A stretch of 42,648 nucleotides of DNA, taken from positions 1 through 42,648 of the IMG/VR virus record IMGVR_UViG_3300034073_000587. One strand, given 5' to 3'. Positions within the stretch are counted from its first letter, which is position 1; every line of letters begins with the position of its first letter. Both the position numbers and the translations under genes were made by a program. This document shows positions 1 to 13,394 of the stretch, piece by piece. The notes under the pieces were generated by a model. It made no database searches and was not told the DNA's origin. It was given only the letters and a program-made list of their open reading frames with translations. The DNA is from a virus.

Positions 1-527
1 ACATTCGGATAGGCCGCACGAAGGTGGCTGACGACTTGCTGAGCCAGATAGGCCGGATAGTTGCGACCGGGGTTGTGGCTCGCATAGCCGTTGTTCGGGG
101 ACCAGCCGACAGGTGTCTGCCCGCCCGTGAACTGCACCATCATGTATTTGCCGGTGATGCCGTTCTGCTCCAGCCACTTGTCGGCACGCTCCTTGAGGTG
201 GCTCGTGTATAGCTTCGGAGCCATTGCCTTGTCGTATTCGACGCCGAACAACTCGCAGTAGGACTCGATCAAGTGCTGCTTGCCGAGAGCGAAGTTGGAC
301 TTGTAAGGCTCGCAGTAGAAGATGTTGTCCGAGCGCATGATGCGCGGATCGTTCAGCGGCAGCGACTGCTCATAGGCCATCGCCACGTCGGGGTTGAAGG
401 CGAACACGTCGATGTAGGGCGTGTAAATCTGGATCGCCTCACCAGCCTTCTCGGCCAGCTTGGGGATCAGAGCGGTGAACGCCGTGCATTTGCCGATGCC
501 GCCTTCGATGACGTAGGTGTTAAGCAT
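1..527 (-). CDS. Partial GT9-like glycosyltransferase (heptosyltransferase type), C-terminus outside window
   Basis: Open from an ATG at 525-527 to the left edge (about 175 codons, no stop). The N-terminus [20 protein letters not shown] resembles the glycine-rich loop that opens GT9/ADP-heptose LPS heptosyltransferases, followed by alternating strands and a second-domain start near residue 125 ([10 protein letters not shown]). The start overlaps the stop of the upstream tail fibre gene in an ATGCTTAA arrangement, so translation is probably coupled. The context suggests a virion- or host-surface-related sugar transfer, for example fibre glycosylation or LPS modification. The fold is assigned by eye from short motifs and the acceptor is unknown. 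Base composition is G+C-richer than most of the window. Confidence 0.55.
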
Positions 528-3500
528 TCTCAAGCGCCTCCAAGCGCGCGGTCAGGGTTTCGACCTGAGCCGTTAGTTCTTGTATCGCCTTCACCAGCAC
601 GGGGATCAAGTGCGCTTCGGTGTATTGCAGCTTGTCCGGGTTGTCGGCGCTGATGATAACAGGATCGTCACCTTCGAGCGGCAGGACTTCTTGAGCAAGG
701 AAGCCATAGCGGCGCTTGCCGTCTGTCTCGTCGCTCTCGCGGCCCTTGCGGAACTGATACTCGGTGGGCTTGAGAGCGCGCACAAAGTCCAGACCATGCT
801 CGATGGGGCGGAAGCATGTCTTGTCGCGGCAGTCCGATGTAGCCGTCCACGCAATCTTGATGAGAGCGCAGGTGTGGTCGTCATTCCCCATGACGATGTA
901 GTTGCACTCGGTGGTGATGTTGCAGATGCCTTCTGGCGTTCCACCTGTGCGGCCTGCGTTGCGACCGATGCCGATGTTGTTGTCGCCAGTGGCGTTAAAA
1001 AGGGCAGCGCTGCCAACTGCTGTATTTCCTTCCGCAGTCAATGCTGCGTCTAGCGCGGCGTTGCCTACAGCCGTATTGAAGGAGCCTGTCGTGTTACGCC
1101 AGTTTGCCAATCGCCCAAAAGCCGCGTTAGATGCTCCGGTTGTGTTGCACCGAAGCGCCTCTATACCAACCGCCGTGTTGCAGATGCCCGTTGTGTGACA
1201 AGCAGCGGCAAAAACACCAACCGCGACATTACCGCACCCCGTAGTGTTGCACCGCAGCGAGCAAGCCCCAACCGCAGTATTGCTCGTCCCCGTCGTAGTG
1301 CACAGCGCAGCCTGATAGCCTACGGCGACGTTGTTCATATCGGCGTTGCCGACAGGGTTTTGAGCAAACAGGGCTTGGTAGCCTACGGCGGTGGATTGAT
1401 CGCCTTCGACGTTAGACTGAAGGGCAAGACGGCCAAGCGCTGTGTTAAAAGTGCCTGTGGTGTTGCACTGAAGAGCAGACCTACCAAAGGCAATGTTGTC
1501 GCCGCCCGTGGTATTAGCTTGCATAGCAAAGGCACCAACAGAAGTATTATTTGACCCTGTTGTGTTGCATAACAACGAAACAGTCCCAACAGCCGTGTTA
1601 CTCACCCCCGTCGTAGTGCACAGCGCAGCCTGAAAGCCCACCGCCACGTTGTTCATGTCAGCGTTGCCGACGGGGTTTTGGTTGCGGAGGGCGTCGTAGC
1701 CTACTGCAACGGATTGGTCGCCTTCGACGTTAACACAAAGTGCGTTGACACCCATAGCGGTATTAAGAGTGCCAGTGGTGTTGCAGCGCAAAGCGCTAAA
1801 ACCGTTGGCAGTGTTACTACCGCCCGTAGTTGCGCAGCACAATGCGGCAAAGCCTGTAGCGGTGTTACAGTTCGCGGTGGTGTTGCTTGCAAGAGCCCCC
1901 ACACCTACCGCAACGTTCAAGATCCCCGTTGTATTATCACGAAGAGCTTCTACGCCTACAGCCGTGTTAAAGTTTCCTGTTGTATTGGCGCGAAGGGCGC
2001 AGAACCCAGAAGCGGTATTGAGGCATCCCGTAGTATTTAGCCTCAGGCTGCAAGCACCAACAGCCGTATTATTCGTCCCCGTCGTCGTGCACAGCGCAGC
2101 CTGATAGCCTACGGCTACGTTGTTCATGTCGGCGTTGCCGACAGGGTTTTGGACAAGCAAGGCTTGATAGCCGATGGCGACGGATTGATCGCCTTCGACG
2201 TTAGCGCAGAGGGCACCAACACCAACAGCGACATTAAGGCATCCTGTAGTGTTGCAGCGGAGAGCGTCTACACCAGCAGCAGTGTTATTAATCCCCGTGG
2301 TGCTGCTGAAGAGTGACCGCAAGCCTGTGGCGGTGTTGTTGCACCCCGTCGTATTAAGCCTCAGACTGCAAGCCCCAACCGCAGTATTACTGGTCCCCGT
2401 CGTCGTACACAACGCAGCGTTAAAGCCAACGGCCACGTTGTTCATGTCGGCGTTGCCGACGGGGTTTTGGTTGGCAAGCGCTTGATGACCCACGGCGACA
2501 GACTGATCGCCTTCGACGTTGGCGCAGAGGGCGTTGTTGCCGATGGCGATGTTACAGGAGCCTGTGGTGTTGCTCGTGGCGCTAAATGCGCCCACGGAGA
2601 TGTTGGCATTGCCGGTAGTGTTTGCGCAAAGGGCACTCGTTCCCAACGCCACGTTAGAATTGCTGGTGGTATTCAGCCGCAGCGCACACGCACCAACAGC
2701 AGTATTCTGCGTCCCCGTCGTCGTACACAGCGCAGCCTGATAGCCGACAGCTACGTTGTTCATGTCGGCGTTGGCGGCGGGGTTTTGGTTGCGGAGGGCG
2801 TCTACGCCGACAGCAACAGATTGGTCGCCTTCGACGTTAAGGCAGAGGGTGTTGGTGCCGACAGCGGTGTTGAGACTGCCGACGGTATTAGCATTTAGAG
2901 CCAGCACCCCTAGTGCAGTGTTGTTGAGGCCCGTGGTGTTGGAAGAAAGTCCGCTAACGCCAACAGCGACGTTGTTTAATCCTGTAGTATTGGTGCGCAA
3001 GGCACTGGCACCCAGTGCGGTGTTATTTGCTCCCGTGGAGTTTATGCAAAGCGCTGCGAATCCCAGCGCAGTGAGGTTGGTCGCTGTCGTATTCAACCGC
3101 AACGAGCAGGCACCAACCGCAGTATTCTGGCATCCCGTCGTCGTACACAACGCAGCCTGAAAGCCCACGGCTACGTTGTTCATATCGACGTTGCCGACGG
3201 GGTTTTGGAAAAACAGGGCTTGATAGCCTACGGCGGTGGACTGATCGCCTTCGACGTTGCAGCGCATGGCCTGCATACCAATCGCAGTATTACAGGCGCC
3301 TGTAGTGTTAGCACGAAGCGCAGATGGCCCCACCACAACGTTGCATCCGCCAGTAGTGTTGGACGACAGTGCAGACTGACCAACTGCAATATTGTTAGAA
3401 GCTGTCGTATTGCACACAAGTGCGCCTTGCCCGACTGCGGTGTTAGATGTGCCAGTTGTGTTTGCAAAAAGGCTATTTGTGCCTAGCGCCACATTGAAGG

Positions 3501-4071
3501 AAGCTGTCGTGTTGCATTGGAGAGAGCCTGCGCCAAAAGCAGAATTGTTGCAGCCACTTGTGTTCGCCGTCAACGCATTGTTGCCAACCGCCGTATTAAA
3601 TCCACCCGTCAGCCCAGCATCATCCAGCGCCCCATCCCCCAGCGCCACGTTGTTCGTGCCAACAGGATAGTTCCCGTCCAGCTTGATCGTGCCGTTGACG
3701 TTGAGGCTGGTGGCCGCAGTGCTTGCGCCGATGCTCACGCCGTCGATGGTGCCGCCATTGATGTCAACATCCGATTGAACATCAGCACTGGTAGCAGTGA
3801 TATATACAACAGCATTACCGCTCAAGCTAAGAGCAGTATCACTATTGCTGCTTTCGGTTACAGTGCGGCTAAGAGTAGTTCCAGATGCAGTGTATGTGCC
3901 AGTGCCAATTTCCCAATTAGCGCCGTCTTCGATGACGTAACGAACAACGTCACCATTTACAACACCAGCATCAGCAAATGATTGAAACCCCGTAACCGCC
4001 GAACCGAGCGTCAGGGTGCCCGTGCCGGTTGTGGCAGTGGTCATTTTAGCGCGGTTAACGAGTTTAACCAT
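520..4071 (-). CDS. Tail fibre / receptor-binding adhesin with S74 intramolecular chaperone domain
   Basis: This 1183-aa protein has three parts. Residues 1-130 form an attachment domain rich in Thr/Ser. Residues 140-1060 carry 17-residue repeats of the form NTAVGxxALxxNTTGxx, with six interspersed NVEGDQS...[15 protein letters not shown] modules, resembling a YadA-head-like beta roll. Residues 1076-1183 form an S74 chaperone domain with the SDCRDK Ser-Lys motif (S1079, K1084) and a terminal coiled coil ([11 protein letters not shown]). Such domains template fibre trimerisation and then cleave themselves off. Cys recurs at fixed repeat positions, which is unusual for a fibre. A GGAG ribosome site precedes the ATG. 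The protein is expected at the tail tip and to contact the host envelope. Confidence 0.85.
1020..3640 (-). repeat. 51-nt / 318-nt nested coding repeats in the fibre gene
   Basis: The anchor CGCCTTCGAC (plus-strand orientation) occurs at 1401, 1719, 2190, 2508, 2826 and 3246. The spacings are 318, 471, 318, 318 and 420 nt. All equal one 17-aa plus one 21-aa module followed by 4, 7, 4, 4 or 6 further 17-aa (51-nt) modules. The array therefore appears to have grown and shrunk by whole 51-nt units without breaking frame. Confidence 0.9.
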
Positions 4072-4085
4072 TTTGGATTACTCCA

Positions 4086-4517
4086 TCAAGTCACGGTGAA
4101 GGTAAAGATACCGCTTGCATTCCAGATAATCTTGAAGTCAGTTTGATCGCCAGCGGATTGCGAACCATCGAAGTCGATGAAGGCAATCGGGGGATCATTC
4201 GCATCAGTGTCATTGTAGATAACCGCATAGGAAGCAGTAATCGAACCGCCAGAGGCCGTCCAAGTCACATCATCAGCGTCGAACTTGGCATCATTGGTCG
4301 TGACAGTAATGACAGCCACATTGGTGAGTGCTTGACCGCCAGCGGTATATCCAGTGCCAGTGGTAGCCTCAGTGCCAGTGATACCCGACAGTTGAGTGTT
4401 TGTGGCATCGAAGGTGGCAGTGGTGTAGAGTTTGACCTTGTAGGTGTCTCCAACAGCATTCGAGCCGTCAGCGAAGAGTTTAGCAGTGTGGTCATAAAGA
4501 GAAATGGTTACAGCCAT
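4086..4517 (-). CDS. Virion-associated hypothetical protein (Thr/Ala-rich, beta-rich)
   Basis: The 143-aa product is rich in Thr, Ala, Gly and Asp, with alternating short strands (YKVKLYTTATFDATNTQL, ASYAVIYNDTD, IAFIDFDGSQSAGDQTDFKI), and has almost no charged Lys/Arg clusters, transmembrane segment or signal. This profile is typical of small fibre-associated or decoration proteins. The ATG has a good AAGGAAC ribosome site. It lies directly between the fibre gene and other small structural genes on the same strand, so it is probably a tail fibre partner. No family is recognised with certainty. Confidence 0.6.
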   Translation of the reverse strand: MAVTISLYDHTAKLFADGSNAVGDTYKVKLYTTATFDATNTQLSGITGTEATTGTGYTAGGQALTNVAVITVTTNDAKFDADDVTWTASGGSITASYAVIYNDTDANDPPIAFIDFDGSQSAGDQTDFKIIWNASGIFTFTVT

Positions 4518-4531
4518 AGTGACAGTTCCTT

Positions 4532-4789
4532 TTAGATGAAGTAGCCATAGATGCCAGTGGCGGTTGTGCCTGTGGCTTTAACCCGCTTGACAATGCAATC
4601 CAGTTTGAAGTTGTTGGGAACCGTCACAGTGCGCTCAACACCATTGGCATTGAGATAAACAACGTCCCCTGCTACTGTAACGTAAAGTCCGATACAGGTT
4701 CCTGTCAGATCAGTCGTGTTATTAGGAGTGATCGCAGAGAAGTCACGGGCTACATTACCCGCAGATAGATCAATAAAGTTTGCAGGCAT
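4532..4789 (-). CDS. Small virion-associated hypothetical protein
   Basis: The 85-aa protein has a beta-rich pattern (CIGLYVTVAGDVVYLNANGVERTVTV) and ends IYGYFI. It resembles small phage spike or base proteins that display a single beta domain, but no named family is secure. The GAGG ribosome site precedes the ATG. It is closely spaced with genes on both sides and probably cotranscribed with portal and fibre genes. Confidence 0.55.
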   Translation of the reverse strand: MPANFIDLSAGNVARDFSAITPNNTTDLTGTCIGLYVTVAGDVVYLNANGVERTVTVPNNFKLDCIVKRVKATGTTATGIYGYFI

Positions 4790-4803
4790 GTTAGCACCTC
4801 ATG

Positions 4804-5496
4804 TCAGGGCCAAGTTGAAATAGCTGCACGTTTCCAAGTATCGGTTGCTGTGCAGATGTAAATATAGTTATCGTCGAAGGCAATCTCACCTTTAGTGCCG
4901 GTGGAATTGGCTGCTGCGGGAGGTGTATTGAAGATATCCTCAAAAGTCGGCCTGACGAAGAGGTTCCCACTGTTCTTGCTGTCTACCGCAGCGGCTACAA
5001 CAACAATGTTATTGGGAGGAGAAGGGCGAGTAGCTGTCAGTTGACCGGCAGAAGACGGGCTAGCATACAGGATATCACCAGCGGTATAGCCAGAGGTATT
5101 TACTCCGCGCACCTTGCCAAAGGCAGTGACATAACCATCTGTGTCATTCGGAATGTCTTCAGCAGCTACACCCATGACGTAGTGGCTATCATAGGTGCCA
5201 TCAGCCAAGAAGGGAGCAGCCTTGAGACGACCAGAAGCACCAATAGCGCCATCAAACCGAACTACAGTCCCTTTGTTGATCTGAGAACCGGTGGCGTTCC
5301 TGACGTAGTAGAACTCTTCCAAGCCGATCTTGAGTTTGGTATCACCACCATTAAGACCCAGATCAAGGGTGCCATCCTCGGCAGACCAAGCAACTTCACC
5401 TTCAAGCAGTGTATCAGTTTGCTCTTTATCGAACGCGATTTTACGAGTTGCGAGTAGGATTGGGTAGTGCAGTATCTTGCGCCACAGGTGTATCAT
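4804..5496 (-). CDS. Virion-associated hypothetical protein, start uncertain
   Basis: The core GEVAWSAEDGTLDLGLNGGDTKLKIGLEEFYYVRN, followed by KGTVVRFDGAIG and GYTAGDILY, looks like a small family of phage structural proteins encoded between portal and fibre genes. The rest is beta-rich. The reading frame is open upstream to an ATG at 5544. I chose the ATG at 5496, which has a weak GAGCGAG site and overlaps the portal end by about 56 nt. The conserved-looking part begins only near KIAFDKEQ, just after the portal stop at 5441, so a non-ATG start there is also possible. The C-terminus (KGEIAFDDNYIYICTATDTW) looks like a carbohydrate-contacting tail-fibre element. Confidence 0.65.
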   Translation of the reverse strand: MIHLWRKILHYPILLATRKIAFDKEQTDTLLEGEVAWSAEDGTLDLGLNGGDTKLKIGLEEFYYVRNATGSQINKGTVVRFDGAIGASGRLKAAPFLADGTYDSHYVMGVAAEDIPNDTDGYVTAFGKVRGVNTSGYTAGDILYASPSSAGQLTATRPSPPNNIVVVAAAVDSKNSGNLFVRPTFEDIFNTPPAAANSTGTKGEIAFDDNYIYICTATDTWKRAAISTWP

Positions 5497-6817
5497 TTGC
5501 AACTCGCTCTTCGTATGCTTCCCGGTCAAACGGGATTTCAGCAATAGCCATCAGTTCTTCGACAACCTCGGGGTGTTGCGATACGGAAATCTCTGCACCA
5601 TTCAGGTTGCGGAGGAAAGCGGCGATCTCACGCAGATCATGCGGAGCAACATCACCAGCAACCAGTTTAGGCATTGTCTCATAGGGGAGACCATTGAGTT
5701 GCCACAGACGCTCGATCAGTTGCTTGTTTAGCACCGTCACGATGGTGTTGATGTAGCTTTCCATACTACGAAGGAAAAGGTCAGTCTTCGACTTGGAAAG
5801 GGCATAGGAGCCAGTATTACCTCCACCCAACATCAGGAACTCAGCCATCACGGATCGTGCGATGTCGTGCTGATACCGCTTCACCACTGGGTCAATATCA
5901 ATAGACCGATTGCCATTGGCAGATATGAGTTCAACATCCATAAGGCGTTGATTGGTAGGCTTCCCATCCACATCGACATAAGGATCAGAGGGAAGGAGGG
6001 CATATCCTTGTTCATTGTTCTTCAAATCCCGTAGAATTGCTTCAAACTGTGACTTGAGAGAAGACTGTTCGCTCGTAGCATCAGCAGATAGATACTCAGC
6101 AGGCATACGACCGATAGGAACACCATGAAGTTCCCGCTCGATGGCGATGGCCTCATAGGCTTGTATCTTGTTGAGGTAAGTGTAGGCCGAGTAGGCATTA
6201 CGGAGGATCGACCGACCAGAAGGGTCATTGTTGAAGCTGGTGGTCCTGTAGTAGAGGCTCTTCTCGATGGGGATCATGGCAGGACGCCTGTTCCAACCCA
6301 TCTCTTGTTGAAGGCCAAGGATGTCACCAGTCTTGTTATCTACAACAAACTTTTCAACGGTCCAAGGTGCCCGAATAGCAATCTTCCTTACACCGATCCG
6401 TCCATCATCAAACTTGCTGTTTTTCTTCCCAGAGCGGGCATCCCCTTGTCTACGCTTGTAGACCACCTCAAACCAAGAAAACCCATAAGTCAGATACGAC
6501 AGAGCCTCAGAGATATGGTCTTCGAGGGAATGTTCCATGTCCATGAAGATAGACTTCACAAACTCTACTTCGTCTTTAGCTTGTTGACTATCGTTAGCCG
6601 GAACAACCTTGATCTTGACATCACGAAGGACTTGCTCAGTGGCATACATGACCGCGCCAATGGTGGCGTTATTGTCACGCATCTCACGATACTTCTGGAT
6701 AGCCCTACGACCACGAAGTTCAGTCAAGAACTCGTCTGCACGGATATCGCCAGTATATGTGTTCTTGCCCGATACACCAAGTTCGATCTTGGCGGCGGTC
6801 TCACTGAGTCTCTTCAT
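5441..6817 (-). CDS. Portal protein (DUF935 / Mu gp29-like)
   Basis: The 458-aa product lies immediately downstream of the large terminase, the usual portal position. Visible features match DUF935-type portals: an N-terminal REMRDNNATIGAVMYATEQVL helix, the FVKSIFMDM...SLEDHISEALSYLTYGFSWFEVVYK core (about residues 85-125), a clip/stem region rich in aromatic residues, and a C-terminal long helix (FLRSMESYINTIVTVLNKQLIERLWQLN). The portal forms the dodecameric DNA gate in the capsid vertex. No head morphogenesis (MuF) domain is fused. The gene is spaced 3 nt after TerL, so expression is likely coupled. Confidence 0.85.
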   Translation of the reverse strand: MKRLSETAAKIELGVSGKNTYTGDIRADEFLTELRGRRAIQKYREMRDNNATIGAVMYATEQVLRDVKIKVVPANDSQQAKDEVEFVKSIFMDMEHSLEDHISEALSYLTYGFSWFEVVYKRRQGDARSGKKNSKFDDGRIGVRKIAIRAPWTVEKFVVDNKTGDILGLQQEMGWNRRPAMIPIEKSLYYRTTSFNNDPSGRSILRNAYSAYTYLNKIQAYEAIAIERELHGVPIGRMPAEYLSADATSEQSSLKSQFEAILRDLKNNEQGYALLPSDPYVDVDGKPTNQRLMDVELISANGNRSIDIDPVVKRYQHDIARSVMAEFLMLGGGNTGSYALSKSKTDLFLRSMESYINTIVTVLNKQLIERLWQLNGLPYETMPKLVAGDVAPHDLREIAAFLRNLNGAEISVSQHPEVVEELMAIAEIPFDREAYEERVANDTPVAQDTALPNPTRNS

Positions 6818-6820
6818 GGC

Positions 6821-8197
6821 TTATCCTATTCGTGATAACAGGCCCTTCGCATCTTGATAGCCAATACTCAATGCGGGTTTTGCAACACTCTTCAAAGCAA
6901 GATTGGTGATGGCCCATACGAGAGCATCAAGCCTGTCAGGAGAACCGATAGAGCCAAGAGGCTCCCATTGCACTAATTGGTCCTCTAGGGCGTCTAGGCC
7001 CCTTACATGCTTGACCTTACCTCTTTCATACAACGAAGATACTGGTTCTGCCCTAGCGAACTTACCTCTTGAAGCATGAACCATCCTGATAGGAACACTG
7101 TCATCAACGGTCAAAAGAGTATGTCTGACCATTTCGCCACCTTGATTTCTCTCGGCAACGATACAGTCAGCTTCATACTCGTTATACAGTTCGATGGCCT
7201 TGGTGGCCCATTGTTCGGGCGTATATCGGTCTGTCTGGTCATCTAGGACATAGCAAGTCCCATTGACATCCATACCAGCTACGATCATCCCCGTCATGTC
7301 AGATTCAGCATTAGCCGACACAGCAGGGTCTACAGATACAACAACCCTAGCCAGTTCAGGGACATCTTCTTTATCAATCTCGCATTCAGCCAACATACCT
7401 CTTGTCCAGAGGGCACCAGAGGCTTCATCCAAGACTTCAGCATACAATTCCTGCCTACCAAGCCTTGTGCCCTCATATTGGCTCTTGACGGCGGTAAGGT
7501 AAGTGGAGGCTAGGTTTGCTGAGTTATCGAAGGTCGAACCACTTGTCACAACCGTTTTAGGGTTCTTGACTATTTCCCTCAACAACTTGGTTGGTTTGGG
7601 AGTGGTAGTGATACAGACCTGAGGATGGGAACCCAATCGCAGACAGAACTGCAACATGTCCCATGTATCTCTATCCTTGTTCCAAGCACACAACTCATCA
7701 CACCAAGCATGGTGGAACTGTGGTCCTCGGAGACGTTCAGGCTCTTCAGCGGAAAAGAACTGGACTTGAGCGCCATTGTCCCAAGTCAGTGTCCTCTTCG
7801 TGGGGGACCATTCAGGATAACCTAACTTGATCCCATTAACCGTCTTGTCATTGGGGCTACAACAAGCAAGGAACCCGCTTTCACCCTTGACCATAACTCG
7901 TTCAATATCCGAGTTGGTGGCGGCTACAGCAGCAATCCTCTTCTGCCCGCCAACCATAATCTTTTCTCTTACCCACTCGACCCCGGCCCTAGTCTTACCA
8001 AACCCTCGACCAGCATTGATGAGCCAGATATTCCAGTCACCACTAGGAGAGATTTGTTCAGGTCTGGCCCAGAACTTCCAAGTATACTTGAGTTCATCAG
8101 CCTTCTTAGGGTCCATCTTGGTCAAGATGCTGACAACATCATGCCCCATTTCTCTGAGGTCATCAGCATGGATGGGTAGACCGTTCTTACCGGGCAT
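6821..8197 (-). CDS. terL: Terminase large subunit
   Basis: The ATPase/nuclease motor packages DNA into the prohead. Walker A is GRGFGKTRAG near residues 63-72. A Walker B-like stretch and the coupling motif TTTPKPTK follow. The C-terminal nuclease begins at VVVSVDPAVSANAESD with its first catalytic Asp and continues with CIVAERNQGG. The length of about 458 aa is normal for compact TerL proteins. An upstream in-frame ATG lies at 8203, but the ATG at 8197 has the better-placed AAGGA site, so I prefer it. It overlaps the TerS end slightly, consistent with translational coupling. Confidence 0.93.
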   Translation of the reverse strand: MPGKNGLPIHADDLREMGHDVVSILTKMDPKKADELKYTWKFWARPEQISPSGDWNIWLINAGRGFGKTRAGVEWVREKIMVGGQKRIAAVAATNSDIERVMVKGESGFLACCSPNDKTVNGIKLGYPEWSPTKRTLTWDNGAQVQFFSAEEPERLRGPQFHHAWCDELCAWNKDRDTWDMLQFCLRLGSHPQVCITTTPKPTKLLREIVKNPKTVVTSGSTFDNSANLASTYLTAVKSQYEGTRLGRQELYAEVLDEASGALWTRGMLAECEIDKEDVPELARVVVSVDPAVSANAESDMTGMIVAGMDVNGTCYVLDDQTDRYTPEQWATKAIELYNEYEADCIVAERNQGGEMVRHTLLTVDDSVPIRMVHASRGKFARAEPVSSLYERGKVKHVRGLDALEDQLVQWEPLGSIGSPDRLDALVWAITNLALKSVAKPALSIGYQDAKGLLSRIG

Positions 8198-8591
8198 CCT
8201 CATCCTTCTCAGGAGCCTTCATATTCAACAAGGCGAGAAGTTCATCAATAGCCCCTGTATCCTCATTCGCTTCTTCAGGGTCAACTTCCTCAACCTTGAT
8301 GGTCGGGTTCCACCCAGCCTTACTACGAAGAAAGAGTTCAGCAGCCTTCATGTCTCCATCAAGAGCCTTGTTTACTACAACAGCCCCTACCCGCTCATGG
8401 ACATCAGATCGGGCTTCAGCAATGTCATTCCTATAGACCTTATACAGAGACGGCATGGAAGTCGGGGCACCATCAAATCTCTGAATATCGTCAAGGATGA
8501 CCTTCATCGACACCCCAGCCTTGATCTTACGCCGAATCTCTTCAGCGATAATCAGCCTATGCCTGAGTGGTTGGGGGAATGTGGTCAACAT
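8187..8591 (-). CDS. terS: Terminase small subunit
   Basis: The 134-aa protein is directly upstream of TerL. An N-terminal helix-turn-helix-like segment (RLIIAEEIRRKIKAGVSMKVILDDI...SMPSLYKVYRND) would recognise the packaging site. A central helical oligomerisation segment (VNKALDGDMKAAELFLRSKAGW) and an acidic tail follow. The order TerS-TerL-portal supports the call. The start has an AGGACGAG ribosome site. It is the first gene after a 165-nt leader and a sigma70-like promoter. Confidence 0.8.
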   Translation of the reverse strand: MLTTFPQPLRHRLIIAEEIRRKIKAGVSMKVILDDIQRFDGAPTSMPSLYKVYRNDIAEARSDVHERVGAVVVNKALDGDMKAAELFLRSKAGWNPTIKVEEVDPEEANEDTGAIDELLALLNMKAPEKDEDAR

Positions 8592-8695
8592 TGTCTCGTC
8601 CTACAACAAGGAGAAATACTAATGATTAGGTTATCGAAAAGGGTAAGATATTGCTTTTACGACAATAATCTCGTCTATTATTACTGAATAGGGTA

Positions 8696-8754
8696 AGGGC
8701 TTATGCGTCCACTTCAATCTCTACAGCTATGGTGTGGAAGTTCGACGTAAGCCC
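8696..8754 (-). promoter_or_regulatory. Long stem-loop at the 5' end of the late leader RNA
   Basis: AGGGCTTA at 8696-8703 pairs exactly with TAAGCCCT at 8747-8754. The stem continues inwards through CGTC/GACG and ACTTC/GAAGT with small bulges. It would form at the extreme 5' end of a transcript starting near 8756. It could stabilise the late mRNA or act as a regulator target. A second, A+T-rich hairpin (AATAAT-7-ATTATT) is at 8664-8682. Confidence 0.6.
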
Positions 8755-8762
8755 TATGTGTG

Positions 8763-8792
8763 ATAATATAGCAACAGTTTTGGATTTGTCAA
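8763..8792 (-). promoter_or_regulatory. Sigma70-like leftward promoter for the terminase/portal genes
   Basis: On the minus strand, TTGACA (8792-8787) is followed after 18 nt by TATTAT (8768-8763). The TATATTAT run also allows a 16-nt spacer. The -35 is consensus. The predicted start near 8756 gives a 165-nt leader before TerS at 8591. Confidence 0.65.
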
Positions 8793-8829
8793 GGGGTAGG
8801 TCTTTTTGACCAACCTTAGACAGAATCAT

Positions 8830-8923
8830 AAGGAACCATCATTAGGAACTCGATAAGTAATCAATCATATACAGAGATATAAAATCATACAATCGTCATT
8901 AGAACCTAATGGTATAGTTCCTT
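8830..8923. repeat. Nested inverted repeats AAGGAACCAT / AGTTCCTT
   Basis: AAGGAACCAT at 8830-8839 faces ATGGTATAGTTCCTT at 8909-8923. Inside it, CATTAG-AAC-CTAATG (8897-8911) is a perfect 6-bp stem, and a direct copy of CATTAG lies near 8839. The structure is A+T-rich and upstream of the late promoter. The function is not known. Confidence 0.45.
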
Positions 8924-8973
8924 ATGTATAGAGAGGATAAGGAGTATGTAGGAAGATTTCTCTTGTTGTCAAG

Positions 8974-9219
8974 TGAGGCAAATTGTCGCACCTTAGATAT
9001 TTATTTTTTACTGTGGTATTTTTGCAACACTATAGTATTTCTATCTATGGGTGGATTATGATTCTTGTAGTAGAAAAACCGAAGGTTACAGGCGGAGGGA
9101 ACCGGAGCCGAGAGAAATAATACCCGCCCCGAATGCCCCCTCCTCTGCCTGCGACATAATGTCACACCTAACCTCCTAGGTCTTGACAGCTTTTAAGGTG
9201 CCTGCGTCAACATGTCGCA
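8974..9219. promoter_or_regulatory. Three 17-bp operator-like palindromes (TGCGACAT-N-ATGTCGCA type)
   Basis: The best copy, TGCGACAT-A-ATGTCACA, is at 9150-9166. A second, TGCGTCAA-C-ATGTCGCA, is at 9203-9219. A degenerate one ending TTGTCGCA is at 8974-8990. All three are followed by a similar ACC-containing tail ending in TA. Repeated dyads in a promoter-rich intergenic region suggest a DNA-binding regulator site. No cognate regulator is identified. Confidence 0.5.
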
Positions 9220-9306
9220 CCCTATCAAATTTTGGTTCCGGGTATATGGGGGGCTACCGCACACTAACGAATCAGTCGCGCATAATCCCAAGGGTCCCTG
9301 GGCCTA

Positions 9307-9323
9307 TGTCAAGCCCCTTGACA
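9307..9323. repeat. Perfect inverted repeat TGTCAAG-CCC-CTTGACA
   Basis: Seven-base arms pair exactly around a 3-nt centre and place TTGACA hexamers back to back on the two strands. Neither has a strong -10. The leftward one has GATTAT at a 19-nt spacing. It could be a weak divergent promoter or an operator. Confidence 0.4.
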
Positions 9324-9440
9324 CGATTTTTTGATCCGAGGGGATGATTCTTTTTAAATAGGTCAAAATTGTCTTGACATTTGAATAATTTAAGAGGGAG
9401 AGAGGTGATTCGCCAACCCATAGGCCAACTGCCAAATTAC

Positions 9441-9462
9441 TGACACTCGACCTAATCCAATG
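9441..9462 (+). repeat. 22-bp near-direct repeat, left copy
   Basis: The sequence begins TGACACTCGACC and ends CCAATG. It matches 11911-11932 in 20 of 22 positions and in the same orientation. The pair brackets the leftward cassette together with its terminator. Confidence 0.7.
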
Positions 9463-9528
9463 GAATTGAACACCCGTTCAATTAATTAACCGACTGAAAA
9501 GATACGTTATAACATAGCGTCACCCGGA

Positions 9529-9569
9529 CAAAATGAAACCCCTACCGACTCTCTGGGAACCGATAGGGG
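9529..9569 (-). terminator. Terminator of the leftward cassette
   Basis: On the minus strand, CCCCTATCGG...CGGTAGGGG forms a stem of about 9 bp with one mismatch (9539-9569), followed by TTTCATTTTG. It lies just beyond the last gene of the leftward unit, so that unit appears to be separately terminated. Confidence 0.6.
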
Positions 9570-9612
9570 CTGAGACGCGATAGGCGCGCCATACAGGGGC
9601 TATGTCATGGGG

Positions 9613-9693
9613 CTATGGGGTAACCTGCCAGAACGCGACTAACAGCCCCACGAACCCTACGAACCCCGCGCAATCAAGGATCAGACGGCGCAT
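9613..9693 (-). CDS. Possible 26-aa single-span membrane microprotein
   Basis: A 26-codon frame starts at an ATG (9693) with GAGGG seven nt upstream and overlaps the end of the preceding 81-aa gene by 13 nt. It encodes MRRLILD, then a hydrophobic stretch of about 15 residues (CAGFVGFVGLLVAFW), then a short tail. The positive N-terminus fits an N-in inner membrane span. It is the last frame before the terminator. It could be real or a chance hydrophobic frame; the ribosome site and coupling favour it modestly. Confidence 0.4.
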   Translation of the reverse strand: MRRLILDCAGFVGFVGLLVAFWQVTP

Positions 9694-9926
9694 GTAGTTT
9701 CCCTCATATTTGCACGGATTAACGGATGGACAGTATATTGCAACCCGTAGGATTCTAATAATTTGCAATAACGATCAATTGACTTTTTGTCTCTTATAGG
9801 GCTTGCACCAAATTCTGCGCGGGTTGAAATATATTCATTGTCTCTTTTCCAAGCCAACTGCTTTATAGGCCAGAATTGAGAAAAATCAGACCTTATTATA
9901 ACCTCAAAGCCCAGTATTTTTTCCAT
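9681..9926 (-). CDS. Hypothetical 81-aa protein of the leftward cassette
   Basis: The start at 9926 has a strong AAGGAAA ribosome site. The frame is open further upstream to 10142, but that extension overlaps a separate small gene and lacks signals, so I rejected it. The product (MEKILGFEVIIRSDFSQFWP...DKKSIDRYCKLLESYGLQYTVHPL) looks like a small alpha/beta protein. DKKSIDRYCKLLESYGL is an amphipathic helix. No family is recognised. It is the fourth gene of the cassette. Confidence 0.6.
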   Translation of the reverse strand: MEKILGFEVIIRSDFSQFWPIKQLAWKRDNEYISTRAEFGASPIRDKKSIDRYCKLLESYGLQYTVHPLIRANMRETTCAV

Positions 9927-9940
9927 AGCTATTTTCCTTT

Positions 9941-10090
9941 TCAGAGTGTTTCGGTATTTACGATCACAACCGGTAACCCCGCCTTGGCAAGGCTTTCTTG
10001 ATAGGCTTGTGCCTCTGGCAATGTCATGCAAGGGCCAAAGGGTTGAAGGTGGAAGGGTTGAACCTTCGCCAGTCTGTAGGTTGCGCGCAT
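9941..10090 (-). CDS. Hypothetical 49-aa protein of the leftward cassette
   Basis: This is a short gene in a different frame from the long open frame around it. The ATG at 10090 has AAGGAG 8 nt upstream, the best ribosome site in the cassette. The product contains MTLPEAQAYQESLAKAGLPV, a helix ending in a Gly-Leu-Pro turn, then a VVIVNTETL strand. The shape resembles small SPOR-like or adaptor peptides, but this is too little for a family call. It begins 29 nt after the 500-aa gene and ends 14 nt before the next start. Confidence 0.65.
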   Translation of the reverse strand: MRATYRLAKVQPFHLQPFGPCMTLPEAQAYQESLAKAGLPVVIVNTETL

Positions 10091-10119
10091 TGGGTTGACT
10101 CCTTGTCTTTGCGTTTGGG

Positions 10120-11622
10120 TTATGCCGCAAGCGGCAATTCAATTTGACGATTAATTATATCGCCATTGTCATCATATTCTAAATGGTCTTTCAAATAGGC
10201 TTTCTCTTGAATTATATCTTTCTCAATTCTAATTCCGTCGGATTCCTTGACTGTTACTTTGCCAATAATTTCCTTGGCGATATTGAATTGACCGGACTCA
10301 ATAACTTGATCGCGAGTCCAGAATTGACCATTGGACAATTCAATTCGCTCCTCTGTTACATAATATTCTTGATCAAAATCAGATTGGAATATTTTATCGC
10401 CAATATCTTCAATCAAATAATATTCCGACTCTGATTCCACATAGATCACGCAATCCGCATCCCAATATTCAGAGTCTGATTCCACATAGACAATATCGCT
10501 TGCGGAATCGACATAAGATTGCGAGTAAGTATTATACCGACGCCGCGCATAATAAACGGAGACGGATTCCCTATCATGATAAATCTCGCCATTGCCTTCG
10601 CAACGGAAGTAATTACTTTCGTAACAAGACTCGCATATCGTGCACTCGCAAGACTCTACATATATTGAGTCGTCCTCTGACATTGAGTCTCCGCACTCAT
10701 CACAAGTGCAAGGATTCACGCCATACGATCCATGCGTGGCGCTGAATGACGTTGAACCATTGCGCGAAATAATTATCTCCTGATTTTCGGTATCAATTTC
10801 AACGTCTCGGCATATGTCCAGATAAGGTCCGATCACGGAGTCTTTGCCATTGGCAATGTACAATAAGCGCGCGCCATTGAACGCCCTATTGTCTGCCATG
10901 CTATATTGATTGTCCCGTAGCCACGATTCAAGCTTATCGCCTGCCGCGTTGTGCGATACATAAACCGGCGCATGGGTCCTATTCTCGGGGCGGACGATAA
11001 CGCGCGCGCCAATTCGATTCCGATTGTCTTTTACATAGGCAATTTGAAAATCGCCAGAGGCGTATACTTCGCATGGATGCGCGGGCAGATTGTCAAACGC
11101 ATAACGCATACATGAGGCAGTCAGACTCTTGCGCCCATTGGTGCAAATTGCGTCGCCCGGAATCGGTTCTGACGTATAAACGCGTTTAAAATCCGCGCGG
11201 GTTTCCCCTATTTCAAGAGTCAACGTATCGGAGCCAACTTGAACGCCATCCCGATACCATTGCGCGAAGGCAAGGCATTCCGCGTCGGTAAGATAGGGCA
11301 GAATATGCTTAATCATCTTATGCGGCTTGCCAATGGTCCGACGTTCGGAATCCTTATGCGCTTTGCTTTTATAGATTGCCAAGAGTCTTGGATCGGATTC
11401 CGCTGGGGCTGGATTGTATCGGTCAAGGACGGCATAATAGGAGATATTCCGAATCTGATTCCAATAGTTTATTTCATGCTGGACTGATTTAAGCGGAGCA
11501 AATAGCTTTTCTATCTCATTCCAGATTGGCGCGTGAAGATGCCTTGTAATTAAATCACATTCCCCCCAAGACTCCAGAGAGCCCATCAATAGGCGGGCCT
11601 TGTCAGCGTTTGAGAGCGTCAT
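10120..11622 (-). CDS. 500-aa Cys-rich acidic hypothetical protein
   Basis: The start at 11622 follows a GGGGGAAA site; a longer frame reaches 11766 but overlaps an upstream small gene. Residues 1-300 look globular alpha/beta (SWGECDLITRHLHAPIWNEIEKLF, IKHILPYLTDAECLAFAQWYRDG, AFDNLPAHPCEVYASGDFQIAYVKD). Residues 305-341 carry C-x-C-x2-C and C-x-C-x2-C-x2-C clusters, probably zinc-binding. The acidic C-terminal third repeats YVESDSEY/YVESESEYY. I do not recognise the family. It is the main product of the leftward cassette and is read against the early genes. A host-takeover or defence-interfering role is possible but is only inference. Confidence 0.8.
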   Translation of the reverse strand: MTLSNADKARLLMGSLESWGECDLITRHLHAPIWNEIEKLFAPLKSVQHEINYWNQIRNISYYAVLDRYNPAPAESDPRLLAIYKSKAHKDSERRTIGKPHKMIKHILPYLTDAECLAFAQWYRDGVQVGSDTLTLEIGETRADFKRVYTSEPIPGDAICTNGRKSLTASCMRYAFDNLPAHPCEVYASGDFQIAYVKDNRNRIGARVIVRPENRTHAPVYVSHNAAGDKLESWLRDNQYSMADNRAFNGARLLYIANGKDSVIGPYLDICRDVEIDTENQEIIISRNGSTSFSATHGSYGVNPCTCDECGDSMSEDDSIYVESCECTICESCYESNYFRCEGNGEIYHDRESVSVYYARRRYNTYSQSYVDSASDIVYVESDSEYWDADCVIYVESESEYYLIEDIGDKIFQSDFDQEYYVTEERIELSNGQFWTRDQVIESGQFNIAKEIIGKVTVKESDGIRIEKDIIQEKAYLKDHLEYDDNGDIINRQIELPLAA

Positions 11623-11638
11623 TTGCGTTTCCCCCGTA

Positions 11639-11785
11639 TCAAGCGTTAAGCGTTTCAAGGATTTTTTTCTGATCCGACGCGCGGCCATACATGCGCAAGA
11701 GCGATTCCGCTTGGCGCTTGGCGGATTCGATATTGCCGGCTTGGACATGAAGCGCGAGCGTCTCAAGGTGCCGAGAGAGTGTCAT
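11639..11785 (-). CDS. Hypothetical 48-aa helical protein, first gene of the leftward cassette
   Basis: The start at 11785 has AGGAGA at good spacing; an in-frame ATG at 11848 is rejected for lack of one. The product (MTLSRHLETLALHVQAGNIESAKRQAESLLRMYGR) is almost wholly helical, like two antiparallel helices, and mildly basic. It ends 16 nt before the 500-aa gene. Such small helical leaders can be regulators or adaptor proteins, but no family is assignable. Confidence 0.65.
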   Translation of the reverse strand: MTLSRHLETLALHVQAGNIESAKRQAESLLRMYGRASDQKKILETLNA

Positions 11786-11859
11786 CGCAGAGTCTCCTAT
11801 ACATGGGCACGCTACATGCGCGCGAATCCCTAGTAGCACGCAAAGCAAGGCAAGGCAAG

Positions 11860-11899
11860 AGGCTTGGGGCTGTCCAGATCATCGCCAGGCTTGGGGCTG
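11860..11899 (+). repeat. 13-nt direct repeat AGGCTTGGGGCTG, two copies
   Basis: Identical copies at 11860-11872 and 11887-11899 lie upstream of the leftward cassette, 27 nt apart start to start. The spacing is compatible with tandem protein binding sites near the cassette promoter. The leftward promoter itself is not clear (a weak TTGCCT-17-TACTAG lies downstream of these repeats). Confidence 0.6.
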
Positions 11900-11910
11900 A
11901 TTTTTCCGGT

Positions 11911-11932
11911 TGACACTCGACCGAATCCCATG
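11911..11932 (+). repeat. 22-bp near-direct repeat, right copy
   Basis: This pairs with 9441-9462, with two mismatches. In this copy the preceding T creates TTGACA, and TTAGAA follows after 17 nt, so it could double as a rightward sigma70-like promoter reading into the palindrome/iteron region. Confidence 0.65.
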
Positions 11933-12037
11933 TTAGAAACGAATCAATTCAGCACTACTCGGGCTTGGCGCGGAATCGCGTCACGTCGCAAAAAACACCG
12001 AGAATGGGCGCATGAAATTACATGCAAAGAATCATAT

Positions 12038-12131
12038 GTTTGCGCTAACGCTGCACCGCCAATGCTGCACCGCAGAATGTTAATTCTAACATGTTAGCGC
12101 TAACGCCGCACCGCAGAATGTTAGCGCTAAC
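12038..12131. repeat. Cluster of GTTA-N4-TAAC palindromes
   Basis: GTTAGCGCTAAC, a perfect 12-bp palindrome, occurs at 12093-12104 and 12120-12131. GTTTGCGCTAAC is at 12038-12049 and GTTAATTCTAAC at 12079-12090. The intervals carry GCYGCACCGCAGAAT-like direct repeats. This looks like a multi-site regulator or initiator binding array. Confidence 0.7.
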
Positions 12132-12213
12132 GCTGCACCAACAGCAATTATCGGCAATTCGGGGTGATACCTGATTTATCGACAAATCGGGATGATAAAG
12201 TTTTGGCACAAGA

Positions 12214-12345
12214 CCCCACCGAGGGAAATGTTCGCTTGACCCCCACCGAGGGAAATGTTCGTCAAACCCTACCGTGGAAATTGTTCACCCCACCGAGGAA
12301 AATGTTCGCCAAGAATTTCCTTGACCTCACCGAGGAAATTTTGTA
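12214..12345 (+). repeat. Five-copy 21-bp iteron-like array
   Basis: Units resembling CCACCGAGGGAAATGTTCG (plus two leading C/T) begin at 12214, 12241, 12267, 12288 and 12325. Copies 1 and 2 are identical, copy 4 differs at one position, and copies 3 and 5 are more divergent. They are tandem, same-strand, 21-37 nt apart start to start, and non-coding. Directly repeated units next to palindromes at the junction of divergent units are typical of replication origins or cooperative regulator sites. Confidence 0.75.
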
Positions 12346-12349
12346 GAAC
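12321..12349 (+). promoter_or_regulatory. Rightward early promoter candidate
   Basis: TTGACC (12321-12326) and TAGAAC (12344-12349) are 17 nt apart. The spacer is the fifth iteron copy, so binding there would directly affect the promoter. The start near 12356 leaves a short leader with GAAGGAG before the metallopeptidase ATG at 12377. Confidence 0.5.
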
Positions 12350-12376
12350 TGATTCGTCAAGAATGAAGGAGACACC

Positions 12377-13342
12377 ATGCAAGTTCCAAGTCTGATCGAA
12401 ATGCTATCCTACAAGAGGCCTCAAGGCTCTCGTCATCAACGCAAGTTCTGCAATCGCTATCTAGTTCCTGTCTTCGGTCAGCCTGATGCTCATGGTAACT
12501 ATGTTCTTGTTGTAGGAGAGAACCCCAACATCTGCTTCACCGCACATCACGACACTGTTCACACCACCTCTGGTCGTCAGATCGTCAAGATCGAAGGCGA
12601 TATGGTGTCTACTACAGGTAATGAGTGTCTTGGTGCTGACTGCACCACTGGCATCTACATCATTTTAAGTATGATTGCTGCCGGTGTGAAAGGTGTTTAT
12701 GTCATACATTCCGCCGAGGAGAGTGGCTGTCTAGGGTCCCAAGCCCTTGTCAATGACCTTCCGTTGTGGATGGACTACATCGACGCTTGTATCTCTTTCG
12801 ACCGCAAGGGCTACGACAGCATCATCACTCACCAGATGGGCGCTAGGACGGCCTCTGATGCCTTCGCAGACAGTCTTGAGGCTATCCTTGACCTTGGCTT
12901 CAAGGCTGATCCTACAGGCTCCTACACAGACTCAAACGAGTATCGTAGTATCGTCCCTGAATGCACCAACATCTCTGTAGGATACTTCAACCAACACACT
13001 GCTAGTGAGCGTCAAGACCTCATGTTTGTCGAGATGCTCATCACTGCACTCATCAATGCTGACTGGTCCAAGCTGGTCTTCAAGAGGAACCCGAGAGAAG
13101 TGGAATACGATACCTACACCTACACCCCCAAGAAGAAGGTCAAGCGTTATCCTTCCTACGACATGTGGACTAAACCTTGTTCCGCCTACTATGGCGACAC
13201 GATGGTTGATATCGTCAAGGAGAACCCCGAGCAGATCGTGGAACTCCTTCGGTCCTTCGGCTATGAAGCCAATGGGTTGCTTGATGACATCGAGAACCTG
13301 AAATATCGTAGTAGCCACAAACGCTATGATCGTTGGTCTTGA
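12377..13342 (+). CDS. M28/M20-type zinc metallopeptidase
   Basis: The 321-aa protein has the full ligand set of M20/M28 di-zinc exopeptidases in order: H57-H-D59 (TAHHDTVHT), bridging D88 (GADCTTG), E114-E115 (HSAEESG), D142 (SFDRKG) and H207 (NQHTASE). Family members remove N-terminal or C-terminal residues, or hydrolyse small amide substrates, in the cytoplasm. There is no signal peptide. The C-terminal 100 residues (YTPKKKVKRYPSYD... EQIVELLRSFGYEANGLL) are extra to the core. It is the first gene of the rightward early unit and has a strong AAGGAGA site. A peptidase in this position may act on host proteins, but the substrate is unknown. Confidence 0.8.
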   Translation: MQVPSLIEMLSYKRPQGSRHQRKFCNRYLVPVFGQPDAHGNYVLVVGENPNICFTAHHDTVHTTSGRQIVKIEGDMVSTTGNECLGADCTTGIYIILSMIAAGVKGVYVIHSAEESGCLGSQALVNDLPLWMDYIDACISFDRKGYDSIITHQMGARTASDAFADSLEAILDLGFKADPTGSYTDSNEYRSIVPECTNISVGYFNQHTASERQDLMFVEMLITALINADWSKLVFKRNPREVEYDTYTYTPKKKVKRYPSYDMWTKPCSAYYGDTMVDIVKENPEQIVELLRSFGYEANGLLDDIENLKYRSSHKRYDRWS

Positions 13343-13394
13343 CTAGGGAGAGAAAAACATGCTAGGAATGATTCGTCAGACAGAGGAGGACGAC

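What the first reader, a model, noticed from the sequence alone, without database searches (positions are those of the whole stretch)
9441..11932. Leftward cassette bracketed by 22-bp near-direct repeats
A five-gene minus-strand unit (48, 500, 49, 81 and possibly 26 aa) with its own terminator lies between plus-strand early and minus-strand late genes. It is bracketed by repeats at 9441-9462 and 11911-11932 matching in 20 of 22 positions. Its genes match no family I know and its base use differs from the flanks. It could be a transferable host-takeover or anti-defence module, or an element moved by recombination between the repeats.
Basis: partly seen in the sequence, partly recalled or inferred. 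Interest (0 to 1): 0.75.

Follow-up and report, generated by a model that had tools for sequence, protein, structure and literature searches.

The report
Phage island of cell-cycle methylation sites
A marine bacterial virus that avoids the host's cell-cycle DNA-methylation site (GANTC) almost everywhere packs 43 copies into the one stretch holding its early switch region and a swappable gene set, which suggests its first genes read the host's methylation state.

Summary
The repeats and the leftward gene set are real, but the repeats are not borders. The right copy is the -35 and spacer of a rightward sigma70-type promoter conserved in relatives. The left copy lies outside the exchanged segment and is not kept in relatives. 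The gene set is modular: phages with identical TerL proteins carry GP88-family genes instead of the 500-aa gene.

The larger finding is a GANTC (CcrM-site) island at 8592-12376. It has 43 sites against 16 expected; the rest of the window has 25 against 192. Cultured Roseobacter phage CRP-6 and 13 of 14 non-redundant relatives show the same pattern, whatever genes the island holds. Pooled, GANTC is the most enriched of 256 pentamers inside (3.2x) and second most depleted outside (0.2x).

Early promoters here carry GANTC one base after the -10 box, often as TGATTCG, the GcrA motif. Erythrobacter phage XM05 has at least 17 such promoters in its early region. A strict pattern of this class is at chance level in 257 Gb of cellular genomes.

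Best explanation: early transcription responds to host CcrM/GcrA methylation. The architecture is shown. Methylation and GcrA dependence are inferred, and the dense sites inside coding sequence are unexplained.

The parts
8592..12376 (.). GANTC island: 43 GANTC sites from the start of the late leftward (terminase) operon to the start of the early rightward operon
   Evidence: 43 observed vs 16.3 expected (2.63x); rest of window 25 vs 192 (0.13x)
9440..9462 (+). left copy of the repeat (CTGACACTCGACCTAATCCAATG); no -10 box after it and its GANTC is lost (TAATC); not conserved in relatives
11910..11932 (+). right copy of the repeat: -35 box and spacer of the rightward promoter
11910..11945 (+). 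rightward early promoter: TTGACA-18-TAGAAA-CGAATCA, GANTC in the spacer (11923) and one base after the -10 box (11941)
   Evidence: conserved in L055; related versions in L017, L021, L023, L024
11823..11858 (-). probable leftward promoter of the cassette: TTGCCT-17-TACTAG-GGATTCG (11824 GANTC)
   Evidence: read from sequence; L055 has TTGCGC-17-TATAGA-CGACTCA at the same place
12321..12355 (+). second rightward promoter just before the peptidase gene: TTGACC-17-TAGAAC-TGATTCG
   Evidence: CRP-6 has TTGACC-17-TAGAGT-GATTCG at its 44882
13339..13374 (+). third rightward promoter after the peptidase gene: TTGACT-18-TAGGAA-TGATTCG
   Evidence: conserved in L055/L242, L237, L238, L239
11639..11785 (-). 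48-aa ORF (p48)
   Evidence: 49% identical homolog in L018 on the opposite strand
10120..11622 (-). 500-aa gene (X500): SCM-motif core, Cys-rich CxxC...CxxC segment, acidic tandem repeats; 26 GANTC sites
   Evidence: relatives
9941..10090 (-). 49-aa ORF, the most conserved cassette gene
9681..9926 (-). 81-aa ORF, found only in the window; a different ORF occupies this place in L006
9613..9693 (-). 26-aa hydrophobic micro-protein gene
   Evidence: conserved in five relatives
9537..9571 (-). intrinsic terminator of the leftward unit
   Evidence: 15-pair stem, conserved in L006-L009
9467..9480 (.). TGAACNNNNGTTCA dyad next to the left repeat
   Evidence: present in the window, L006, L007, L008, L009 and L055
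12036..12338 (+). iteron-like arrays between the promoters and the early operon
   Evidence: iteron unit shared with L055, similar arrays in other relatives
12377..13342 (+). M28-family zinc peptidase gene, partner of X500
   Evidence: phrog_4191 E=1.5e-77; adjacent to X homologs in many phages

Best explanation
The cassette is the body of an early control island in a CRP-6-type alphaproteobacterial phage. SHOWN: (1) the phage avoids the CcrM methylation site GANTC across its genome but concentrates it between its late and early operons; (2) relatives keep this whatever genes sit there; (3) the density is kept by selection on DNA, because the same protein family has 2.6-3.9x the expected GANTC inside the island and 0.1-1.3x outside it; (4) the early promoters place GANTC one base after the -10 box and often in the spacer, often as TGATTCG, the GcrA motif; (5) unrelated Erythrobacter/Sphingobium-type phages use the same promoter class in their early regions. 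INFERRED: host CcrM methylates the island, and GcrA, a sigma70 cofactor that binds methylated GANTC, or the methylation state itself, boosts or gates the first phage transcripts, tying early expression to the host's cell-cycle/replication state. Scarcity of GANTC elsewhere keeps the signal local. The swappable genes are early accessory genes; X500 works with the divergently encoded M28 peptidase. The right repeat is a promoter of this class; the left repeat is a degenerate look-alike, probably without function.
For: GANTC in the window: island 43 vs 16.3 expected, elsewhere 25 vs 192. CRP-6: 38 vs 8.7 inside, 31 vs 161 outside. Pooled 46.6 kb of islands: O/E 3.19, rank 1 of 256 pentamers, z=28; 154 kb outside: O/E 0.20, rank 255. 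13 of 14 non-redundant relatives have over 3-fold higher density upstream of terS (median 10.3 vs 0.9 per kb). Synonymous-codon shuffles: X500 z=+3.7, +4.0, +3.6; L018 GP88 +6.2; CRP-6 gp68 +5.6; most core genes -1.4 to -2.9. X homologs outside the group: Pasto 0.12, BDU-MI-1 0.13, Indie 1.21, L057 1.32. X500 orthologs share only 8 of 26/22 sites, so density is kept while sites turn over. Other avoided palindromes stay avoided inside the island (GTAC 1 vs 6.7 in the window; CCNGG 0 vs 8.8 in G012), so only GANTC flips. GANTC one base after the -10: 15 vs a background of 2.5 per offset. CGAATCA (= TGATTCG) is the commonest 7-mer around GANTC; GcrA motif TGATTCG/YGAKTCK from PMC7987155. XM05: 17 promoters TTGACCGAATC...AAACGAATCA-type and 7.6 GANTC/kb vs 1.4-2.2 in flanks. 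Strict promoter pattern: 4 hits in cellular genomes, no alphaproteobacterium; 34 stretches, mostly multi-copy, in viral contigs. Controls without an island: CRP-7 (same host as CRP-6), CRP-1, Pasto, R5C, pCB2051-A, Strzyga, MW202777 (Pasto, R5C and pCB2051-A only in part).
Against: No methylation, binding or expression data exist for these phages. GANTC inside coding sequence shows no extended GcrA flank, so promoter control alone does not explain the dense coding sites; in XM05 coding density is only at expectation. Several small island genes (49, 81 aa; CRP-6 gp69) show no enrichment. The window's host is not known. GcrA's extended-motif preference was seen in Caulobacter but not in Brevundimonas. 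A published survey found no positional asymmetry of GcrA sites in cultured alphaproteobacterial phages (PMC9437464), although it does not mention CRP-6 or Erythrobacter phages. None of the phages searched encodes GcrA, and only L020 encodes an N6 methyltransferase.
Confidence: 0.5

Rival explanations
1. Methylation-marked packaging or replication site. The island lies directly upstream of terS/terL and beside iteron arrays; its methylation state tells terminase or the replication machinery which DNA to use, as Dam sites do at the phage P1 pac site.
For: The island abuts the terS-like gene in 13 of 14 relatives. Iterons sit within it. A local, dense, turnover-tolerant cluster with scarcity elsewhere suits a location mark and would explain sites in coding sequence. 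P1 pac as precedent is from general knowledge.
Against: P1 pac is short; here dozens of sites span about 3.8 kb. The fixed position one base after the -10 box points to transcription. In XM05 the rich region is a run of about 44 small leftward genes with repeated promoters.
Confidence: 0.18
2. Import: the island is a rapid-turnover locus whose genes were recently acquired from donors rich in GANTC and have not yet lost the sites.
For: Cassette genes are exchanged between nearly identical phages. In CRP-6 other avoided palindromes (CCGG, CCNGG) are at normal frequency in the island.
Against: GANTC exceeds random expectation 2.5-4.4-fold, not just neutral. In the window, G012 and G014 other palindromes remain avoided inside the island. 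X homologs elsewhere are not GANTC-rich. Intergenic DNA conserved with L055 is rich too.
Confidence: 0.07
3. The cassette is a mobile element or recombination module bordered by the 22-bp repeats.
For: 20 of 22 matches, not expected by chance; the gene content is swapped.
Against: The left copy lies outside the replaced segment and is not conserved. The right copy is a promoter. No integrase domain in the window.
Confidence: 0.03
4. Decoy or conflict site: the cluster serves a GANTC-specific nuclease or methyltransferase, for example to absorb CcrM or expose co-infecting phages.
For: Inside coding sequence only the bare GANTC is enriched, as expected for an enzyme that reads GANTC alone.
Against: A sponge would spread sites through the genome rather than deplete the other ~39 kb; a GANTC restriction enzyme would destroy the island. 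No GANTC-reading gene was found in the window.
Confidence: 0.07

Closest known systems
GcrA/CcrM-controlled sigma70 promoters of Caulobacter and Brevundimonas (PMC3667746, PMC7987155, PMC4287350)
   Same: sigma70-type boxes with GANTC in the promoter; TGATTCG/YGAKTCK motif; GANTC between -35 and -10 is a known activating position
   Different: here GANTC recurs one base after the -10 and often beside the -35; the strict double-box pattern is found in phages and at chance level in cellular genomes; GcrA binding untested
CtrA-mediated 'lytic deferment' in alphaproteobacterial phages (PMC9437464)
   Same: phages concentrating sites of a host cell-cycle regulator in one region of small genes
   Different: different regulator and motif; that study reported no positional asymmetry for GcrA sites; here the clustered site is the methylation motif
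GANTC depletion in pelagiphages and alphaproteobacterial genomes (PMC9516812, PMC3973325)
   Same: genome-wide avoidance of GANTC
   Different: those reports describe depletion; a conserved GANTC-rich island within a depleted phage genome was not found in the papers searched
Phage P1 pac and Mu mom regulatory Dam sites (general knowledge)
   Same: phage processes that read host adenine methylation at clustered sites
   Different: GATC/Dam, few sites over short DNA; here dozens of GANTC sites over several kilobases including coding sequence
phrog_6980/phrog_13313 protein plus M28 peptidase pair of Drulisvirus, Vibrio and Pectobacterium podoviruses and Rhizobium phage Pasto
   Same: X500 shares the SCM core and Cys-rich region and neighbours the same peptidase family
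   Different: divergent rather than co-directional, about 25% identical, and GANTC-rich only here

Membership tests
CcrM/GcrA-responsive promoters | sigma70-type -35/-10 with a GANTC site in the promoter | tested here: met
   11910-11945, 12321-12355, 13339-13374; GANTC one base after the -10 enriched 15 vs 2.5 per offset in islands
CcrM/GcrA-responsive promoters | GcrA extended motif YGAKTCK | tested here: inconclusive
   commonest 7-mer is CGAATCA = TGATTCG (59 of 476), but only 11 of 43 window sites fit YGAKTCK and the pooled flanks are otherwise unbiased
CcrM/GcrA-responsive promoters | adenine methylation of the site and GcrA binding or dependence | not testable with these tools
   needs methylome, ChIP or in vitro transcription
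CtrA lytic-deferment phages | clustered CtrA-binding sites in one genomic region | not tested
   CtrA sites were not scanned; the clustered motif found is GANTC
P1-type methylation-controlled pac site | cluster of methylation sites next to the small terminase gene | tested here: met
   island directly upstream of the terS-like gene; the terS assignment rests on position only
P1-type methylation-controlled pac site | packaging starts within the cluster and depends on methylation | not testable with these tools
   no virion-end data
Mobile element bordered by direct repeats | repeats coincide with the ends of the exchanged segment | tested here: not met
   left copy lies in the unbroken flank of L006/L007 and is not conserved
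Mobile element bordered by direct repeats | encodes a recombinase or transposase | tested here: not met
   no Phage_integrase domain in the window; no recombinase-like family hit for the cassette ORFs scanned
phrog_6980-like protein plus M28 peptidase pair | homologous X protein adjacent to the phrog_4191 peptidase | tested here: met
   tblastn 25-27% to Pasto, BDU-MI-1 and Indie; peptidase phrog_4191 E=1.5e-77; X found beside the peptidase in 8 of 10 peptidase loci with enough upstream sequence (one of the 8 is the L055 contig)

The most novel reading that the evidence does not exclude
Unrelated phages of Alphaproteobacteria have independently built an early-gene region that works as a methylation antenna: a cleared genome with one GANTC-dense island and phage-specific double-GANTC promoters, so the first transcripts fire according to the host's CcrM/GcrA cell-cycle state.
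Probability: 0.4. Interest if true: 0.9.

Novelty: new variant of a known kind. Interest (0 to 1): 0.8.

Why it matters
Phages reading host DNA methylation are known mainly from Dam sites in enterobacterial phages. This points to a CcrM-based counterpart in a phage group reported to be widespread in the ocean (CRP-6 type, PMC6918029), visible as a sign flip in motif density inside one genome. It makes a testable link between the alphaproteobacterial cell-cycle clock and infection timing, with cultured phages available (CRP-6, XM05). It also gives a quick computational marker for early regions: a GANTC-dense stretch in a GANTC-poor phage.

Tried and rejected
Repeats as cassette borders: contradicted by alignments. 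Protein composition forcing GANTC: rejected by synonymous-codon shuffles and by X homologs elsewhere. General relaxation of palindrome avoidance in the island: rejected for the window, G012 and G014, not for CRP-6. A host-wide effect: CRP-7, which infects the same strain as CRP-6, lacks an island. Phage-encoded CcrM or GcrA: not found (only L020 has an N6 methyltransferase, and it is the one relative without a strong island beside terS).

X500 structure: AlphaFold2 with five sequences gave pLDDT 44 and no fold match; X500 has no hit in Pfam above cut-off, PHROGs, NCBIfam or PADLOC. Helical phasing of GANTC spacing: none evident. Circularity of the contig: not resolved, because the junction-spanning frame is only open upstream.
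Full report
OBSERVATION. The two 22-base sequences at 9441-9462 and 11911-11932 match at 20 positions. They are the only such pair in the window by a tolerant pattern search and were not produced by dinucleotide shuffles. The five leftward ORFs and the terminator are present. The 26-aa and 49-aa ORFs are conserved in relatives; the 81-aa ORF was found only in the window.

CONTEXT. The window is a 42,648-base viral record. Its closest named relative is Roseobacter phage CRP-6 (TerL 66% identical). The minus-strand late operon starts with a terS-like gene (assigned by position only) and terL at 8591; the plus-strand early operon starts with an M28 peptidase at 12377. The cassette and two regulatory stretches fill the gap between them.

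RELATIVES AND THE REPEATS. TerL searches brought 49 viral contigs. L006 and L007 have 100% identical TerL and terS-like proteins and about 93% DNA identity up to ~9690. Upstream of the 49-aa gene they carry a GP88-family gene and other small genes in place of the 500-aa gene. L008, L009 and L055 carry diverged X500 genes. The gene set is therefore exchanged. But the left repeat lies in the shared flank and has drifted, and in L055 that site does not resemble the right copy. The right copy aligns with a conserved rightward promoter: TTGACA-18-TAGAAA-CGAATCA in the window, TTGACG-18-TAGAAA-CGAATCA in L055, with related versions in L017, L021, L023 and L024. The repeats are regulatory (right) or vestigial/chance (left), not borders.

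THE GANTC ISLAND. Counting GANTC, the CcrM methylation site, gave an unexpected pattern. From 8592 to 12376 there are 43 sites against 16.3 expected; the rest of the window has 25 against 192. The pattern recurs in CRP-6 (38 vs 8.7 inside, 31 vs 161 outside) and in 13 of 14 non-redundant relatives (median 10.3 vs 0.9 per kb). In pooled islands GANTC is the most enriched of 256 xyNzw pentamers (3.19-fold, z=28); outside it is the second most depleted (0.20). The pool contains some related sequences, so its z-score is an upper bound.

CONTROLS. Seven other alphaproteobacterial or related phages, including CRP-7 from the same host strain as CRP-6, are GANTC-poor without an island (three of them examined only in part). 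Synonymous-codon shuffles show selection for GANTC in several island genes and against it in most core genes. X500 relatives outside this group are not GANTC-rich (0.12 to 1.32). Orthologous X500 genes share only 8 of 26 and 22 sites, so density rather than individual sites is kept. In the window, G012 and G014 other avoided palindromes remain avoided inside the island, so only GANTC changes sign; in CRP-6, CCGG and CCNGG are not avoided in the island.

THE PROMOTERS. In islands, promoter-like boxes have GANTC one base after the -10 six times more often than at other offsets (15 vs 2.5). The window has three such rightward promoters (11941, 12351, 13370), and a probable leftward one reads TTGCCT-17-TACTAG-GGATTCG. 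The commonest 7-mer around GANTC is CGAATCA, the complement of TGATTCG, the motif reported for GcrA-activated promoters (PMC7987155). In Caulobacter, GANTC between -35 and -10 is linked to activation at a particular cell-cycle stage (PMC4287350). A pattern search led to a second, unrelated phage group: contigs related to Erythrobacter phage XM05 and Sphingobium phage Lacusarx. XM05 has at least 17 copies of TTGACCGAATC...AAACGAATCA-type promoters between its small early-type genes and 7.6 GANTC per kb there against 1.4-2.2 in the flanks. The strict pattern gives 4 scattered hits in 257 Gb of cellular genomes, about what a simple estimate predicts by chance, and none in an alphaproteobacterium. 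It gives 34 stretches, mostly multi-copy, in viral contigs.

X500 AND THE PEPTIDASE. The 500-aa protein is a distant member of a phage protein group (phrog_6980/13313) typical of Drulisvirus and related podoviruses. Its homologs sit next to an M28-type peptidase of phrog_4191; the window's peptidase is the divergent neighbour. The functional unit may therefore span the divergent promoters. A structure prediction failed for lack of sequences.

INTERPRETATION. Shown: the island, its conservation, its independence of gene content, and the promoter architecture. Inferred: methylation by host CcrM and recruitment of GcrA-sigma70, giving early expression tuned to the host cell cycle. Unexplained: why coding sequence in the island is also dense; a packaging or replication mark would explain that better, and this is kept as the main rival. 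Concepts nearest to this are CtrA-based lytic deferment, whose authors looked for and did not find clustering of GcrA sites in their phages (PMC9437464), and GANTC depletion in pelagiphages (PMC9516812). No report of a GANTC-rich island in a phage was found in the papers searched, though the library does not hold most subscription journals.

Noticed in passing
window 1258-3260: Long tandem-like repeats (spacings of about 318 bases and others) inside the large minus-strand gene 520-4071, probably a tail fibre.
   Followed up: no
window 12036-12338: Two repeat arrays upstream of the early operon: ATGTTAGCGCTAACGC-type palindromes and CCCCACCGAGGGAAATGTTCG iterons; similar iteron units recur in L055, L021, L024, L017, L027 and CRP-6, so they may be a replication origin or regulator array.
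   Followed up: partly
window 9467-9480: TGAACNNNNGTTCA dyad beside the left repeat, conserved in the window and five relatives; resembles a regulator operator.
   Followed up: no
L020 (G015:13127-13792): The only relative tested that encodes an N6-adenine methyltransferase is also the one without a strong GANTC island beside terS.
   Followed up: partly
window 1-8591 and 12377-42648: GTAC is almost absent outside the island (3 sites vs 100 expected), and CRP-6 almost lacks CCGG and CCNGG outside its island; lineage-specific palindrome avoidance.
   Followed up: partly
L172 / G007: A 20-kb viral contig with 20-41 GANTC sites per 2 kb in half of its length, the densest seen here, with repeated double-GANTC promoters.
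   Followed up: partly
window 10120-11622 and 12377-13342: X-protein plus M28 peptidase pair recurs in Klebsiella, Vibrio, Pectobacterium, Rhizobium and Bradyrhizobium phages; function unknown.
   Followed up: partly
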